A DNA stretch of 64,000 nucleotides from Methanobacteriota archaeon (GTDB taxonomy: Archaea > Halobacteriota > Methanosarcinia > Methanosarcinales > Methanosarcinaceae), in the NCBI GenBank assembly GCA_016841625.1, contig JAENYU010000004.1:1-64000 (forward strand), read 5' to 3'. Positions 53,338 through 63,331 of the stretch are shown here, piece by piece. Every line of letters begins with the position of its first letter. The stretch's first letter is position 1. A model generated the notes under the pieces. It was not told where the DNA came from. It did not search any database and worked only from the letters and a program-made list of their open reading frames with translations. The translations under genes and the position numbers were made by a program.

Positions 53338-56300
53338 TCAGTGTCCACTTTCCAGGAACTTTATCCTGAACAAAGTTCTTCCATTTCCTTCAAGCTCGAT
53401 CGTACCCTCCAGCTGTTCTACAAGGGTATTTACAAGCTGCAAGCCTAAAGAATCGGTGTTTGTGAAGTCAATATTTTCCGGAAAACCCAACCCGTTATCC
53501 GAAACAATCAGTGTGAACTGATGACCTTTGTTAATAATGCTCCCTGTACCGTTATTATTTGTGATGTTACTTATACTTTTATTTCCTGAAATTTCATTCC
53601 GGAAAAGTTTAACGTGAATTTCCCCTTTCCTTCCGGCAGGGAAGGCGTGTTTCAGGGCATTGGAGACAAGTTCGTTGACAATGATCCCTAACGGGATTGC
53701 CGCGTCCATTCCCAGGAATATCTCCTCTACATCCAGTTTCAGCTTTACGTCCTCTTTCCTGACCATATACGAGCGGAGAAGGTCCGAGGTCAGTTTCCGG
53801 AGATAGGCTGCAAAATCAATGGTCTCGGTACCCCCTCCCTTGTACAGCTCTTCGTGGATAATTGCCATGGAAGCCACACGGTTCTGGCTTTCCCTGAATG
53901 CCTCGACCACCTTTTCCTCACTGAAGTGGTCGGCTTGCAGTTCAAGGAGGCTGGATATTACCTGAAGGTTGTTCTTGATCCGATGGTGGATCTCTTTCAT
54001 GCGGATCTTCTCGATCCTTGCAAGGGTTTCTTCCGCTTCCTTTCTCTCCGTGATGTCGTAGATTGCGCCCTCCAGGCGGCCTAATTTCCCTTCGTTTCCG
54101 GGAATGTGCTGGACGATTTCGTGGACCCATCTTCTGCTTCCGTCCCTATGCCTGATCCTGTATACCTCTTCGACGAAAATGCCAGGAGTGGAACTTATTT
54201 TAGCTATTTGCGGCTGGAGGCGGGCAAGATCTTCGGGCTCTATAATCTGTTCCCATATTACTTCTCCTGAAGTGAATTGTTCTTCTCTGTAACCGGTGAT
54301 CTCTTCCAGAGCTCCGTGCATGAAGATGTGTACGAAATTCAGGGTTGACTGGAAAGCAATCCCCTTGAAGTTCTGCATAAATGAACGGTACTTCTCTTCG
54401 CTTTCCCGTACTTTATCAAGGGAATGCTTGATCTGTGTGATGTCTTTATTTGTCCCGAGCATCCTGCTCATGCGGCCCTTTTCATCCTTCAGGAAGACTC
54501 CCCGGTTTTCCACATAAAAATAGCTCCCGTCCTTCTTCCTGAGCCTGTACTCCTCATGGTACCTCTCTCCGGTCTCCAGGCATTTTTTAAACGAATCAAC
54601 CGCACGCCTGCGGTCTTCCGGGTGTAAGCGCTCTTCCCAGTCAGCCTTACAGTTAATCCCGAATTCTTCCAGGCTATAATCCGTAAGCTCTTTGATAGCT
54701 CCTGCCCAGCCGAGTTCATCTCTCAGAAGATCATAATCATATACAAGCTGCCCGGTCTCTTCGGCAACGATGCGGAACCGTTCCTCGCTTTTCCGCAATT
54801 CTTCCGTTGCAAGTTTTCTCTCCGTGATGTCTTTTATCACCCCGATCATCCGGTATACTCTGCCCTTTTTGTCCCTCAAATAAGTCCCGCAGTCTTCCAC
54901 GTAAATATAGTTCCCTGAATTTTGTTTGAACCTGTATTCCTGACAGTAACTCCCTCCGCTCCTAAGGGATTTACCAAAGTGTGAGACTACATTTCCATAG
55001 TCTTCGGGGTGAACGTGCTCTTTCCAGAGGTTCCAGGTCGTAAGCTTACGGATTTCTTCATAAGTATAACCGGTAATTTCCTCAATGGCCCCTGCCCATT
55101 TTACATGTTCTGAATTAATGTTAAAATCGTATATGAGCTGGCCTGTCTTCTCTGCCGCTACGCGGAACCTTTCTTCGCTTTCCTGGAGTTTTTCCGCAGC
55201 AAGCTTTATGAGTGTGATATCTTTTAGCACCCCTATAGCTTTGCGGATATGCCCCTCGTCGTCCCGGAGGTAAACCCCGCTGTCTTCAACGTGGAAATAG
55301 TTCCCGTCTTTCTTCCTGAACCTGTATTCCACACGAAAACGGTTGCAACTTTTCTGGAATTCCCTGAGTTTTGCCAGAGTCTCTCCCCGGTCTTCCGGAT
55401 GGATATGCTCTGCCCACATTTTCCCATCGAATTTCCGGAACTCTTCAATGCTGTACCCGGTAACTTCGGTGATTGCCCCTGCCCAGGAAAGTATGTCGTT
55501 CACATGGTCATGTTCAAAGACGATCTGCCCTGTCTGTTCGGCAGCAACCCTGAAGCGCTCCTCGCTTTCCTCAAGTTTCCTCTGGGCAAGCTTCTTCTCT
55601 CCAATGTCTTTGATAATTCCAAGTGCCTTGCATATGTTTCCGTTTTCATCTCTAAGGTAGATTCCTTCATCCTCCACGGTAACATAGCTTCCATCTTTTC
55701 TTCTGAGCCTGTACTCTTCGAAGAAATCCCCTCCTTCTTTCCTGCACTGTTCATGTGCCGACGTCACCCTTTCCCGGTCTTCAGGATGGATCAACCCAAC
55801 CCAGCCGTTGACGGTGATTTCCTGGAATTCCTCAAAGCCGTATCCGGTAATTTCGGGGATTGCTCCCCCCCATTCAATTACCCCTTTGGTATAGTTATCA
55901 TGATAGAGGACCTGGCCGGTATGTTCTGCAATCAAGCGGTACCTTTCTTCACTTTTTTCAAGTTTCTCCCTGGCAAGTTTCTGTTCCGTGATATCTTTTT
56001 TCACGCCAATGATCCTGCAAGGGCACCCTTTTTCGTCTTTAAGGATCTGCCCGCAGGATTCCACGTAGAAGTAGTCCCCGTCTTTTCTCCTGAACCTGTA
56101 TTCTTCTTGAATCCTGCCCCCCTTCTCGAGGGCTTCATTGATCCTTTCGACGGCACGTTTCCTGTCCTCAGGGTGGACGTGTTCTGCCCATTTTTCCACG
56201 TCGAATTTCTGGAATTCTTCTGCAGAATAGCCTGTGAGCTCCTGGATAGCTCCTGCCCAGTAGATAACCTCGTTTTTAAGGTCATGCTCAAATACGATTT

Positions 56301-58341
56301 GTCCGGTCTGCTCTGTTGCATTCCTGTATTTTTCTTCGCTTTCTTCCAGTTTCGGCCGCGCCCGTTTTCTCCCCGCTCTCTCTTTACTACGCCCTACCGA
56401 TCTGCAAGGGCACCCTTTTTCGTCTTTAAGGATCTGCCCGCAGGATTCCACGTAGAAGTAGTCCCCGTCTTTTCTCCTGAACCTGTACTCCTCAACGAAC
56501 CTTTCCCCTTTCTCGAGGGCTCCCATGATCCTTTCGATGGAACGTTTCCTGTCCTCGGGGTGGACGTGTTCTGCCCATTTTTCCAAGTCGAATTTCTGGA
56601 ATTCTTCGGCAGAATAGCCTGTAAGTTCCTGGATCGCTCCCGCCCAGTCGATAATCCCGCTTTTAAGGTCATTCTCAAATACTATTTGTCCGGTCTGTTC
56701 GGCAGCCTGCCGGTACTTCTCTTCACTTTTCTCAAGTTTTTCCCTGGCAAGCTTTCTTTCCGTGATGTCTTTTATTACCCCGGCAGTCCTGTAGACCTTC
56801 CCATCCTTATCTTTTAAGTAAAAGCCGTTGTCCTCTGCGTAGAAGTAGCTCCCATCTTTTCTCCTGAGCCTGTACTCTTTATAGAAGTCTTCCCCTGTCG
56901 CCAGGCATTTTTTATAGGTCTCGACAGCCATCTGGCGGTCCTCCGGGTGGAGGTGTTCAGCCCAGACCTCAGGGATGAATTTCTGGAACTCGTCATAACT
57001 GTATCCCGTCAGTTCTTCAATGGCTCCTGCCCAGATACTCCGGTTGGTCCTCAAATCATAATCATAAACAAGCTGCCCGGTCCTTTCTACAACTGCCCTG
57101 AACCTTTCTTCACTTTTCTCAAGTGTTTCCTGGACGAGCTTTCTTTCGCTTATGTCTTTCATTACTCCGAGGAGTCTGAATATGCGACCGCTTTCGTCTT
57201 TGAAGTAGAATCCACGGTCTTCCACGTGGAAGTAAGTCCCGTCCTTTCTCCTGAACCGGTACTCTTCGAGGTATTTATCCCCGGTTTTCATGCACATTTT
57301 ATGGGTTTTCCAGGCCCTTTCCCTGTCTTCGGGATGTATATGGTCAATCCAGCAATCCAGATTCATCTTCTGCATTTCTTCAAATGTGTAGCCGACAAGC
57401 TCTTTGATCGCCCCCACCCAGTCAATTCTCCCTGTTGCAAGGTCATAATCATATACAAGTTGCCCCGTCTGTTCGGTAGCAATGCGGTACCTTTCCTCAC
57501 CTTTTCGGAACGTTTCTTCCACAGCCTTGCACTGAGTCATGTCCAGCATCACGCCTGCAATCCCGCTAACATTTCCAGAGCTGTCCTTATATGCGGCTTT
57601 GTGGAACAGGAAATCCCTTGTTATGCCGTCGGCACAGACCACCCGGGTTTCGTAATAGTGGGTTCCTCCTTTCTCGAGAAGTTCCATGTCATGCTTCCGA
57701 TAAATTCCCGCAAGCTCTTTAAGCACCTTTTTATGCAACTCTGCAAAAGACCCTCCAATGACCTTTTCCTTCGGAAGCCCCATGATCTGCCTGGCAAATG
57801 TCTCGTTGCAGTTTAAGTATGTTCCATTCAGGTCCCTCTGGAATACGGGGCTCGGAATGTCGTCGAGCAGGGTTTCCAAAAAACTAACGGTGTTTCGAAG
57901 AGCTTCTTCTGCCCCCGTAAGTTCGAGATTCCTTTTCCCTGCACTTTCCTCGAACTCTTCACACTTTTTTTTCAGTTCCTCTTCGGCTTTCCGGAAGGGG
58001 CTTATGTCAAACCCGTAGAGGTCTACGCAGTTTTCTTCCGGCAGGGAGCAGAATGTGACGGAGTATGTCCTTTTCTCCGTATTAATTTCAAATTGTTCCG
58101 GATTTTTTTGAGAAAGTATTCCCCTTATCTTATCGACCATTGATTGAGGAAGTTTTTCTCCTTCCCTGCAGCCCCAGTATTCCGTCAGAGGACTTGCAGC
58201 CTTGTTCGCATAGAGGACTGTCCCTCTTCTATCTACTCTGAGGACAGGGTTCGGGTTATTTGAAGGAAACTGGTCCGGCATTTTTACTTCTTCTTTTTCC
58301 CCATGCCAGTTGCAGGCTTCAGCGTCTTTAGAATCCCCCAT
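53338..58341 (-). CDS. Giant cytoplasmic histidine kinase with about eleven PAS domains
   Basis: A 1667-aa kinase without membrane helices. After an N-terminal PAS-like region (NPNPVLRVDRRGTVLYANKA) and a second (LLDDIPSPVFQRDLNGTYLNC), eight closely related PAS/PAC units follow, each opening with a variant of ESEERFRVAAEQTGQ and containing HPEDR and YRFRRKDGxYF. An eleventh PAS differs (SFMQNFKGIAFQS). The core has KEIHHRIKNNLQVISSLLELQ (HisKA_2) and NELVSNALKHAFPAGRKGEI with DNGLGFP. In one unit the linker DITExK is degraded to ERAGRK (near 56350-56395). GAGGT precedes the ATG. It likely signals to the receiver gene downstream. Confidence 0.93.
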   Translation of the reverse strand: MGDSKDAEACNWHGEKEEVKMPDQFPSNNPNPVLRVDRRGTVLYANKAASPLTEYWGCREGEKLPQSMVDKIRGILSQKNPEQFEINTEKRTYSVTFCSLPEENCVDLYGFDISPFRKAEEELKKKCEEFEESAGKRNLELTGAEEALRNTVSFLETLLDDIPSPVFQRDLNGTYLNCNETFARQIMGLPKEKVIGGSFAELHKKVLKELAGIYRKHDMELLEKGGTHYYETRVVCADGITRDFLFHKAAYKDSSGNVSGIAGVMLDMTQCKAVEETFRKGEERYRIATEQTGQLVYDYDLATGRIDWVGAIKELVGYTFEEMQKMNLDCWIDHIHPEDRERAWKTHKMCMKTGDKYLEEYRFRRKDGTYFHVEDRGFYFKDESGRIFRLLGVMKDISERKLVQETLEKSEERFRAVVERTGQLVYDYDLRTNRSIWAGAIEELTGYSYDEFQKFIPEVWAEHLHPEDRQMAVETYKKCLATGEDFYKEYRLRRKDGSYFYAEDNGFYLKDKDGKVYRTAGVIKDITERKLAREKLEKSEEKYRQAAEQTGQIVFENDLKSGIIDWAGAIQELTGYSAEEFQKFDLEKWAEHVHPEDRKRSIERIMGALEKGERFVEEYRFRRKDGDYFYVESCGQILKDEKGCPCRSVGRSKERAGRKRARPKLEESEEKYRNATEQTGQIVFEHDLKNEVIYWAGAIQELTGYSAEEFQKFDVEKWAEHVHPEDRKRAVERINEALEKGGRIQEEYRFRRKDGDYFYVESCGQILKDEKGCPCRIIGVKKDITEQKLAREKLEKSEERYRLIAEHTGQVLYHDNYTKGVIEWGGAIPEITGYGFEEFQEITVNGWVGLIHPEDRERVTSAHEQCRKEGGDFFEEYRLRRKDGSYVTVEDEGIYLRDENGNICKALGIIKDIGEKKLAQRKLEESEERFRVAAEQTGQIVFEHDHVNDILSWAGAITEVTGYSIEEFRKFDGKMWAEHIHPEDRGETLAKLREFQKSCNRFRVEYRFRKKDGNYFHVEDSGVYLRDDEGHIRKAIGVLKDITLIKLAAEKLQESEERFRVAAEKTGQLIYDFNINSEHVKWAGAIEEITGYTYEEIRKLTTWNLWKEHVHPEDYGNVVSHFGKSLRSGGSYCQEYRFKQNSGNYIYVEDCGTYLRDKKGRVYRMIGVIKDITERKLATEELRKSEERFRIVAEETGQLVYDYDLLRDELGWAGAIKELTDYSLEEFGINCKADWEERLHPEDRRRAVDSFKKCLETGERYHEEYRLRKKDGSYFYVENRGVFLKDEKGRMSRMLGTNKDITQIKHSLDKVRESEEKYRSFMQNFKGIAFQSTLNFVHIFMHGALEEITGYREEQFTSGEVIWEQIIEPEDLARLQPQIAKISSTPGIFVEEVYRIRHRDGSRRWVHEIVQHIPGNEGKLGRLEGAIYDITERKEAEETLARIEKIRMKEIHHRIKNNLQVISSLLELQADHFSEEKVVEAFRESQNRVASMAIIHEELYKGGGTETIDFAAYLRKLTSDLLRSYMVRKEDVKLKLDVEEIFLGMDAAIPLGIIVNELVSNALKHAFPAGRKGEIHVKLFRNEISGNKSISNITNNNGTGSIINKGHQFTLIVSDNGLGFPENIDFTNTDSLGLQLVNTLVEQLEGTIELEGNGRTLFRIKFLESGH
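56001..56715 (-). repeat. Recent tandem duplication of a PAS unit
   Basis: Two segments of about 320 bp (56001-56320 and 56394-56715) inside the giant kinase gene are nearly identical in DNA, far more than the other PAS units are to each other. The linker between them is GC-rich and divergent. Confidence 0.75.
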
Positions 58342-61027: not shown

Positions 61028-61254
61028 TTCCCGGGGTTTGTTTTATTTCGTTGATTTTGTTCTGGGTTCAGGGAAAAATGAATTCTGAAAAAATTCAATA
61101 CTCTAATTTTTTTAATCTCATTTGAATTACAGCTTTTTAATTTTTATGTTTTGAGTTTGTAAATTTATGTTCTACGTGCTGCCCTGGAGATGTAGAGGAC
61201 GATGTATTAAAATATCCTGAAGATTTAAAATATCCAGAAGATTTGCCAGAGTGT
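61028..61254. other. Promoter region and omega-RNA guide site
   Basis: AT-rich DNA between the kinase gene and the iscB element. The last 16 nt (61239-61254) flank the element end and are where an IscB guide would be encoded. GAAGATTT repeats twice (61219-61245). Confidence 0.35.
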
Positions 61255-61872
61255 CAACTACCCCTCCCTAAAATCTAAGCCGTATGGCTTAGATTTTAGA
61301 GTAAGGGGCTTGCAAAAGCCCTAGTTGATTAGCCTAAGTACGTTATTCTGGTCACGATATTCGTGGATACTCCACTCGTTCACGAAGATTTCGATCTAAC
61401 TAAACATCTCTTAGAGGTTGGAGAAGTGGAACGATCATTAACAAGCCAGTATAACAGTGGCGAAGTGGACTAACTCCATTCAGGAGGACGAAACTATCAA
61501 AGTATTTCAGTATCTCCGAATGATATACGGCATTTCCACACGGCAAGCTAATCATGTAAAAAAAGTAGTGTTGTTTCCAAATTTTGTGGGATCACTATCA
61601 ATGGCTCCCTGGTGATCCATTGACCTACACCCCCACGTCACTGGTTCAATGGGGGTGGCCACATAGTTACGAATTCTTCATCCGACTCAAAAATTCCTGA
61701 AAAATGCAAACTCTTAAAATAATCGGAGTTATTAACCTCGAGTTTTCCATAACATTACACAATCCATTCTAAAATAATAAATAAGTGAGTTTATTTTAGC
61801 TGATATGTACAAAAGTTCATAAAGTGATTCGGAGATACTGTATTTGTCAAAAATCTTAATAATGAACCATTA
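61255..61872 (+). ncRNA. Candidate IscB omega RNA
   Basis: A 600-bp structured region with no gene precedes iscB, where omega RNAs of IscB are encoded. Visible stems are CTAAAATCTAAGCC / GGCTTAGATTTTAG (61268-61299), GGGCTT / AAGCCC (61306-61321), CAACTA / TAGTTG closing both (61255-61260 and 61322-61327), CACGA / TCGTG, GGATCAC / GTGATCC and CACCCCCA / TGGGGGTG (within 61588-61660). The guide would lie directly before 61255. The exact 3' end is unknown. Confidence 0.65.
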
Positions 61873-63174
61873 ATGCCAACAACCCCGAGGAAGGCAAGAA
61901 TCTTACTGAAATCTGGAAAGGCAGAAGTGGTACAAAGAAACCCATTTACCATTAGGTTATTATATCCCTGTGGAAACGCTACGCAGGAGATCACATTAGG
62001 GATTGATACCGGATACTCCAATATTGGTTTTTCGGCAGTTACCGAGAAAGAAGAATTAATTTCAGGAGAAGTACAGCTTCTTACCGGGATGGTTGAGAGA
62101 AATCAGGAAAGAGCAATGTACCGGAGAACCCGAAGAAACAGGTTAAGGTACCGAAAACCTGGATTTGACCAGAACACCAATAAGGAAGGATGGTTTGCTC
62201 CTTCAATCCGGCACAAGCTTGATACTCATTTAAGGTTTGTGGAAAAACTTCACGAACTTTTACCGATAACTAAAATAGTGGTCGAAATTGGGAAGTTTGA
62301 TATTCAGAAAATCAAAAATCCTGACATCAAAGGTAAACAGTATCAGGAAGGGGAACAAAAAGGATATGAGAACCTCCGTGCTTACATTTTGCACCGGGAT
62401 GGTTACAAATGTCAAAACCCTGACTGTAGTATAACATCAGGCAAGTATACCCGGTTAGACGTTCACCACATTGTTTATAGGAGCAACGGAGGTTCTGACA
62501 GTCCTAGTAACCTTATTACCCTGTGCTCTCGCTGTCATACTCCGAAAAATCATAAGGGGTTTTTGTTGATATGGAAACCCAAAACTAAGGGTTTTAAAGA
62601 CGCTACATTTATGAACACTGTTAAAACGAAAGTGTTTGAAATCTTGAAAGAAACTTATGGAAATGTGAAAGCTACCTATGGATACCTCACAAAAATTAAA
62701 AGGTTGAGTATGGGGCTTGAAAAAACGCATTATAATGATGCTTTTTGTACTGTGGAAGGTGATAAGCAGATCAGGCATGAACCTTTTATAATTAAGCAGG
62801 TTCGCCGGAATAACCGGAGTCTGTCAAAGTTTTATGATGCGAAGTACATAGATTCAAGAGATGGCTCTACTAAATCAGGTCAAGACCTGAACTCTGGAAG
62901 AACTTGCAGGAATAAGAATCTAAACACTGAAAACCTTAGACAGTACAGACAACAGAAGGTTAAGAAGGGTCGTTATAGCATCAGGAAAAAAAGATACCCT
63001 ATTCAGCCTATGGATTTGGTTAAGTTTAAAGAAACTTTGTATTATGTAGCAGGAACTCAAAACGAAGGAGCATATATTAAATTGAAAAATCTCAAAAAGG
63101 TTATTCGATCTGAAAAAGTTAACCTAATCAAGTACGGAAAAGGTTTTTGTTGGCTTAATCCAAAAGTAGTTTGA
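61873..63174 (+). CDS. iscB: IscB RNA-guided HNH/RuvC endonuclease
   Basis: A complete 433-aa IscB, the family from which Cas9 arose. The PLMP-type N-terminus is MPTTPRKARILLKSGKAEVV. RuvC-I is GIDTGYSNIGFSAV (D45), the arginine-rich bridge helix is YRRTRRNRLRYRK at 83-95, and RuvC-II is VVEIGKFD (E138). An HNH domain is inserted at about 165-225 with C180, C185, DVHHIVYRS (H198-H199), and CSRC at 218-221. RuvC-III is THYNDA (H286, D289). All catalytic residues are present. The long upstream non-coding region is the likely omega RNA. The C-terminus is basic and should bind the target-adjacent motif. Confidence 0.95.
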   Translation: MPTTPRKARILLKSGKAEVVQRNPFTIRLLYPCGNATQEITLGIDTGYSNIGFSAVTEKEELISGEVQLLTGMVERNQERAMYRRTRRNRLRYRKPGFDQNTNKEGWFAPSIRHKLDTHLRFVEKLHELLPITKIVVEIGKFDIQKIKNPDIKGKQYQEGEQKGYENLRAYILHRDGYKCQNPDCSITSGKYTRLDVHHIVYRSNGGSDSPSNLITLCSRCHTPKNHKGFLLIWKPKTKGFKDATFMNTVKTKVFEILKETYGNVKATYGYLTKIKRLSMGLEKTHYNDAFCTVEGDKQIRHEPFIIKQVRRNNRSLSKFYDAKYIDSRDGSTKSGQDLNSGRTCRNKNLNTENLRQYRQQKVKKGRYSIRKKRYPIQPMDLVKFKETLYYVAGTQNEGAYIKLKNLKKVIRSEKVNLIKYGKGFCWLNPKVV

Positions 63175-63331
63175 GGTTAGAAAGTTTACGCATTCATCTC
63201 CCACCTGCCAGCCTTCGGCTGTCGAGGAAGGAGTCTTCTGCTTTTGAAGATAAATTAAACGACGTTGTAAATTTTAGAAATGAGTACTCACACAAAAACT
63301 CGGGACCCTCTGGAAAAGCAAGACTTGATTA

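What the first reader, a model, noticed from the sequence alone, without database searches (positions are those of the whole stretch)
61239..63252. Complete archaeal IscB system with a long structured upstream RNA region
IscB here has every RuvC and HNH residue and lies behind 600 bp of gene-free, highly paired sequence. The nuclease is recognisable on sight; the RNA is inferred from position and stems. Archaeal IscB elements have been studied far less than bacterial ones, and the putative scaffold is unusually long.
Basis: partly seen in the sequence, partly recalled or inferred. Interest (0 to 1): 0.85.

Follow-up and report, generated by a model that had tools for sequence, protein, structure and literature searches.

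The report
IscB element split by a mini-transposon
The archaeal IscB gene and its guide-RNA scaffold are real but ordinary: the scaffold has its usual length of about 222 bases, and the "unusually long" RNA region exists only because a 333-base mini-transposon has landed between the scaffold and the gene and cut off the start of the protein.

Summary
The nuclease is real. 61873-63174 encodes an IscB (NCBIfam guided_IscB, 332 bits against a cut-off of 175) with the RuvC and HNH catalytic residues. A guide-RNA scaffold is also real: Rfam HEARO (RF02033) matches 61253-61474 above its gathering score, and 26 of 36 predicted pairs in an alignment of relatives show changes on both sides that keep the pair. 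Two claims fail. The scaffold is not unusually long: 61508-61840 is a 333-bp MITE-like insertion with perfect 14-bp terminal inverted repeats and a 5-bp target duplication (TATTT). An identical insert lies elsewhere in the genome (C49). A second copy of the same iscB element (C53) lacks exactly insert plus duplication (338 bp) and is otherwise identical but for 1 of 1659 bases. The IscB is not complete: the insert separates the ribosome-binding site and first codons from the gene, so the only start left is the M of the PLMP motif, and 13 N-terminal residues are lost. The parent of the insert is an ISH3-like insertion sequence. Empty sites in congeners confirm the element's own ends. Best reading: a standard IS200/IS605-type iscB element broken by a MITE; its guide RNA may still work in trans.

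The parts
61253..63249 (+). Whole iscB element (IS200/IS605-type ISC element) as now found; native length 1659 bp without the insert and one TSD copy
   Evidence: Both ends set by loss of similarity between copies in different sites; joined flanks align through the junction to the empty site in a congener; equals the C53 copy with 1 mismatch in 1659
61237..61252 (+). Left flank adjoining the scaffold: predicted guide segment of the RNA (length about 16 nt is inferred)
   Evidence: Sequence differs in every copy while the scaffold is conserved; homologous to the empty target site in congeners; guide at the RNA's 5' end follows from known IscB systems (PMC9640706)
61253..61474 (+). HEARO / omega RNA scaffold, 222 nt, normal length
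   Evidence: RF02033, 86.3 bits, gathering 83, full model 1-211; 26 of 36 consensus pairs with both-sided compensatory changes over 19 relatives
61483..61487 (+). Ribosome-binding-like GGAGG of the native iscB start, now cut off from the gene
   Evidence: Sequence; conserved in C53, C59, G003, G081
61496..61498 (+). ATC at the place of the native start codon (TTG in C59 and G003, ATG in G081)
61503..61507 (+). Target site duplication TATTT, left copy
61508..61840 (+). MITE-like insertion, 333 bp, no transposase; derivative of an ISH3-like IS
   Evidence: 100% identical copy at C49:61814-62146 with its own 6-bp duplication TCCCTA; 87% full-length copy in G083; left end related to the IS L169:1425-2898
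61508..61521 (+). Terminal inverted repeat, left: CAGTATCTCCGAAT
   Evidence: Perfect 14-bp inverted pair I11; in the own genome with 0 mismatches only at the four ends of the two copies
61827..61840 (+). Terminal inverted repeat, right: ATTCGGAGATACTG
61841..61845 (+). Target site duplication TATTT, right copy
61846..61872 (+). Orphaned codons of the PLMP domain (VKNLNNEPL), in frame, without a start codon
   Evidence: 15 in-frame codons upstream of ATG 61873, no ATG/GTG/TTG, then a stop at 61825-61827
61873..63174 (+). iscB coding sequence from the only remaining start (M of the PLMP motif), 433 aa; 13 residues shorter than the native protein
   Evidence: NCBIfam NF040563 guided_IscB 331.8 bits; Pfam RRXRR and HNH; PDB IscB matches
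63175..63249 (+). Right end of the element, hairpin; resembles the left end of an IS605 tnpA-tnpB element in the same genome
   Evidence: 77% over 78 nt to L133:1332-1409, just upstream of a Y1 tnpA
63250..63254 (+). ATAAA at the right junction, TAM-like (other copies end in ATGAA, ATAAA, TTGAA, CTGAA or TTAAA)
   Evidence: present in the pre-insertion site by homology; TAM role inferred

Best explanation
This is an ordinary IS200/IS605-type iscB element (ISC element) of a Methanosarcinaceae archaeon, made of a normal 222-nt HEARO/omega RNA followed by iscB. It lies in a site ending in ATAAA, so the flank just 5' of the RNA would serve as guide against the empty site (inferred). A 333-bp non-autonomous transposon (MITE) derived from an ISH3-like insertion sequence then jumped in after the fourth codon of iscB (shown). 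The scaffold RNA is left intact, but the ribosome-binding site and first codons are separated from the gene. IscB can then start only at the M of its PLMP motif, without 13 residues, so this copy probably makes little or no active IscB (inferred). Its RNA could still be loaded by IscB made from the C59 or C53 copies (inferred). The 'long scaffold' is scaffold plus transposon.
For: HEARO covariance-model match at 61253-61474 over the gathering score; compensatory changes in 26 of 36 pairs. The insert has perfect 14-bp TIRs, a 5-bp TSD and no transposase ORF. The C53 copy is identical but for 1 of 1659 bases and lacks exactly the 338 bp. An identical insert lies in an unrelated place, C49, with its own TSD. 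A full-length relative occurs in G083 and a parent-like IS with a DDE transposase, matching TIRs and TSD GTCAT in G105. All relatives checked have 60-107 nt between HEARO and MPTTP. The conserved start at codon -13 is lost; the PLMP motif contacts RuvC and the RNA, and its mutation lowers cleavage (PMC9640706). Congeners carry the empty site.
Against: No expression data: translation from ATG 61873, or a promoter inside the insert, cannot be excluded. The insert folds better than shuffles (z = -3.0), though its inverted ends account for part of this. The uninterrupted C53 copy also has ATC instead of a standard start codon, so loss of function may have begun before the insert. No autonomous parent IS was found in this genome (only a 24% identical remote relative).
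Confidence: 0.93

Rival explanations
1. A long archaeal omega RNA: the whole 61240-61870 stretch is one extended scaffold.
For: The stretch is gene-free and folds more stably than shuffles. Known IscB RNAs span about 200-400 nt (PMC9640706).
Against: Everything from 61508 to 61845 is a TIR/TSD-bounded insert with an identical copy at an unrelated locus and is absent from C53 and all relatives checked. The HEARO model ends at 61474, complete over 1-211.
Confidence: 0.02
2. The insert is a domesticated part: it supplies an outward promoter or regulatory leader for iscB, so the copy is rewired rather than broken.
For: Insert positions 186-290 resemble intergenic sequences lying upstream of orthologous genes in congeners. 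An in-frame ATG at 61873 remains.
Against: The insert is 100% identical to the C49 copy, so it is recent. There is no ribosome-binding-like motif before ATG 61873, and 13 residues including the P and L of the PLMP motif are lost.
Confidence: 0.04
3. The element is simply a functional iscB system whose translation starts at ATG 61873, the missing N-terminus being dispensable.
For: The ORF is intact, with all catalytic residues. Only the first part of the PLMP domain is lost.
Against: The N-terminal strand and PLMP motif are conserved in nearly every relative checked. PLMP-motif mutations reduce cleavage in OgeuIscB (PMC9640706).
Confidence: 0.08

Closest known systems
IscB / ISC elements of the IS200/IS605 group with HEARO (omega) RNA, RF02033 and NCBIfam NF040563
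   Same: Protein architecture, catalytic residues, upstream HEARO RNA of 222 nt, element ends, TAM-like right junction
   Different: This copy carries a 333-bp MITE between RNA and gene and lacks the first 13 codons
Second copy in the same genome (G000:C53:13300) and 84-85% relatives C59 and G003
   Same: Same element; C53 is identical apart from the insert and one base
   Different: No insert; 60 nt between HEARO and MPTTP
MITEs derived from ISH3-like (IS4-related DDE) insertion sequences in Methanosarcinaceae
   Same: TIRs, 5-6-bp TSD, internal deletion of the transposase; end sequence shared with L169 and with G044, G051 and G083 copies
   Different: No autonomous parent found in this genome; the parent-like transposase scores below the NCBIfam ISH3 cut-off

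Membership tests
IscB (RNA-guided nuclease) | Curated family model | tested here: met
   NF040563 guided_IscB 331.8 bits, cut-off 175
IscB (RNA-guided nuclease) | RuvC catalytic Asp, Glu, His, Asp and HNH His | tested here: met
   Aligned with solved IscB sequences: GIDTG, EIGKF, VHHIV, THYND; RuvC residues as named in PMC9640706
IscB (RNA-guided nuclease) | N-terminal PLMP domain and motif | tested here: not met
   The first 13 codons are separated from the ORF or left without a start by the insert; the readable protein starts at the M of PLMP. The uninterrupted relatives have it, so this copy is a damaged IscB rather than a different family
IscB (RNA-guided nuclease) | Cognate HEARO/omega RNA directly upstream | tested here: met
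   RF02033 at 61253-61474
IscB (RNA-guided nuclease) | RNA-guided, TAM-dependent DNA cleavage | not testable with these tools
   Only a TAM-like ATAAA and the empty target site were seen
HEARO RNA (RF02033) | Score above the gathering cut-off over the full model | tested here: met
   86.3 bits against 83, positions 1-211
HEARO RNA (RF02033) | Conserved stems with compensatory changes | tested here: met
   26 of 36 pairs over 19 sequences
MITE (non-autonomous TIR transposon) | Terminal inverted repeats and flanking target duplication | tested here: met
   14-bp perfect TIRs; TATTT in the window, TCCCTA at C49
MITE (non-autonomous TIR transposon) | Short, no transposase, more than one copy, related to an autonomous IS | tested here: met
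   333 bp, no ORF of transposase size; two identical copies; parent-like IS L169:1425-2898
ISH3 family (parent IS) | NCBIfam ISH3 transposase cut-off | tested here: not met
   L169 transposase 86.9 bits against a cut-off of 225; best family all the same; Pfam DDE_Tnp_1 above its cut-off
IS200/IS605 group | Mobilised by a Y1 (TnpA) transposase | tested here: inconclusive
   No tnpA in the element. The genome holds Y1 transposases, and the element's right end is 77% like the left end of the C22 tnpA-tnpB element, so mobilisation in trans is plausible

The most novel reading that the evidence does not exclude
The MITE does more than break the gene: it turns the element into a guide-RNA-only locus whose intact RNA is used in trans by IscB from the other copies, or it supplies a new promoter for a shortened IscB.
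Probability: 0.1. Interest if true: 0.4.

Novelty: new member of a known kind. Interest (0 to 1): 0.2.

Why it matters
It removes a false lead (a long archaeal scaffold RNA) and replaces it with a clean example of one mobile element disabling another. The genome holds matched interrupted (C47) and uninterrupted (C53) copies of the same iscB element, and congeners keep the empty target site. That set would allow a direct test of whether IscB RNA works in trans and whether the PLMP N-terminus is needed.

Tried and rejected
A single long RNA was rejected after the inverted repeat I11 led to the TIR/TSD test and the C53 comparison. Assembly error as the source of the insert is unlikely: the insert has exact ends and a duplication, and its second copy has different flanks and a different duplication. 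Deletion in C53, rather than insertion here, was rejected because C59, G003, G008, G081 and the bacterial relatives all have the short spacing. An autonomous parent of the MITE in this genome was looked for and not found. Plasmids held no match to the insert. A first alignment of HEARO RNAs mixed two subfamilies in the middle and was replaced. PADLOC hits for IscB are only weak HNH matches and were not followed. Two further paper look-ups (PMC4810608, PMC8929163) found nothing held, so those works are known here only as cited by others.

Full report
What is there. The ORF at 61873-63174 (+) is an IscB: NCBIfam guided_IscB 331.8 bits (cut-off 175), Pfam RRXRR and HNH, and significant matches to solved IscB proteins with the RuvC and HNH catalytic residues aligned. 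Upstream, Rfam HEARO (RF02033) matches 61253-61474 over its full length with 86.3 bits, gathering score 83.

The structured RNA is real but not long. In an alignment of 19 HEARO RNAs from archaea and bacteria, 26 of 36 consensus pairs keep pairing through changes on both sides. MAFFT aligned these divergent RNAs on sequence alone, and no consensus pairs were predicted in the 5' part, so the count covers the middle and 3' stems.

The extra length is a transposon. Positions 61508-61840 (333 bp) carry perfect 14-bp terminal inverted repeats. They are flanked by TATTT on both sides (61503-61507 and 61841-61845). In this genome the 14-mer occurs without mismatch only at the four ends of two identical copies, here and at C49:61814-62146. 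The C49 copy lies between different flanks with its own duplication TCCCTA. A second copy of the iscB element, C53:13300 onward, is identical to the window's element over 1659 bases with one mismatch once insert and one TATTT are left out. Between HEARO and MPTTP there are 60 nt in C53, C59, G003 and G008, 61 in G081, 68-107 in the more distant relatives with a HEARO match, and 398 in the window. The insertion is thus derived and recent.

Parentage of the insert. A full-length 87% relative with the same terminal repeats occurs in G083. Its left end also caps a transposase gene tail in G044, and a complete 1474-bp element in G105 (L169:1425-2898) has near-identical terminal repeats, duplication GTCAT and a 364-aa DDE transposase. 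That transposase is best matched by the NCBIfam ISH3 model but below its cut-off (86.9 against 225); Pfam DDE_Tnp_1 is above its cut-off. The insert is therefore called a MITE of an ISH3-like element. No autonomous parent was found in this genome.

What the insert does to iscB. In close relatives the protein begins 13 codons before MPTTP, behind a GGAGG: TTG in C59 and G003, ATG in G081. In this genome both copies (C47 and C53) have ATC there, which is unusual and may already impair initiation. In the window the MITE follows ATC AAA GTA TTT. Downstream of it only 15 in-frame codons without ATG, GTG or TTG precede ATG 61873. The readable protein thus starts at the M of the PLMP motif, and no ribosome-binding-like sequence stands before it. 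[quoted passage not shown] That this copy makes little active IscB is an inference.

The element and its site. Copies at different sites share sequence from GTCAAC (61253) to a right junction of the form NTRAA, here ATAAA at 63250-63254. The flanks joined without the element align through the junction to G002 (77% over 414 columns), and the part across the junction also aligns to G003 and G001. This is an empty site, and it shows that the sequence 5' of the scaffold, the presumed guide, is the former target. The right end resembles the left end of an IS605 tnpA-tnpB element in C22 of the same genome (77% over 78 nt). The element lacks a transposase, so mobilisation in trans by such a TnpA is plausible (inference).

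Relation to what is known. Archaeal IscB-HEARO systems are described (PMC12988326; [quoted passage not shown]). In the 112 genomes of this archaeal family searched, 25 hold a match to this IscB (some only weak, partial HNH-like matches) and 21 a HEARO RNA. Nothing here departs from the known kind except the MITE, and insertion of one mobile element into another is commonplace (general knowledge). The verdict is: observation partly confirmed, long-scaffold interpretation rejected, interest low.

Noticed in passing
window 61692-61797 (insert positions 186-290); own C8:27789-27861 and C8:32849-32942; L066, L067, L068: An inner part of the MITE is 72-85% like intergenic sequences without terminal repeats in this genome and three congeners, at least some of them upstream of an orthologous gene; possibly old remnants or a captured regulatory sequence.
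   Followed up: partly
G000:C48:106840-107064 (-) and G000:C57:12222-12474 (-): HEARO RNAs above the cut-off without an iscB gene found next to them in the same genome, possible RNA-only remnants.
   Followed up: partly
window 61496-61498 and the same codon in G000:C53: Both copies of this iscB have ATC at the conserved start codon, where close relatives have TTG or ATG.
   Followed up: partly
L133 (G000:C22) 1332-1409: The left end of an IS605 tnpA-tnpB element is 77% like the right end of the iscB element, suggesting shared mobilisation by TnpA.
   Followed up: partly
window 53338-58341 (-), tandem array 55937-56877: A 1667-aa sensor-kinase-like protein with many near-repeated PAS-like modules; units of about 387 bp recur in tandem, suggesting recent domain duplication.
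   Followed up: no
G000:C35:121516 and G000:C52:7124: A second, only 48% identical IscB lineage with its own HEARO subfamily lives in the same genome in two copies.
   Followed up: no
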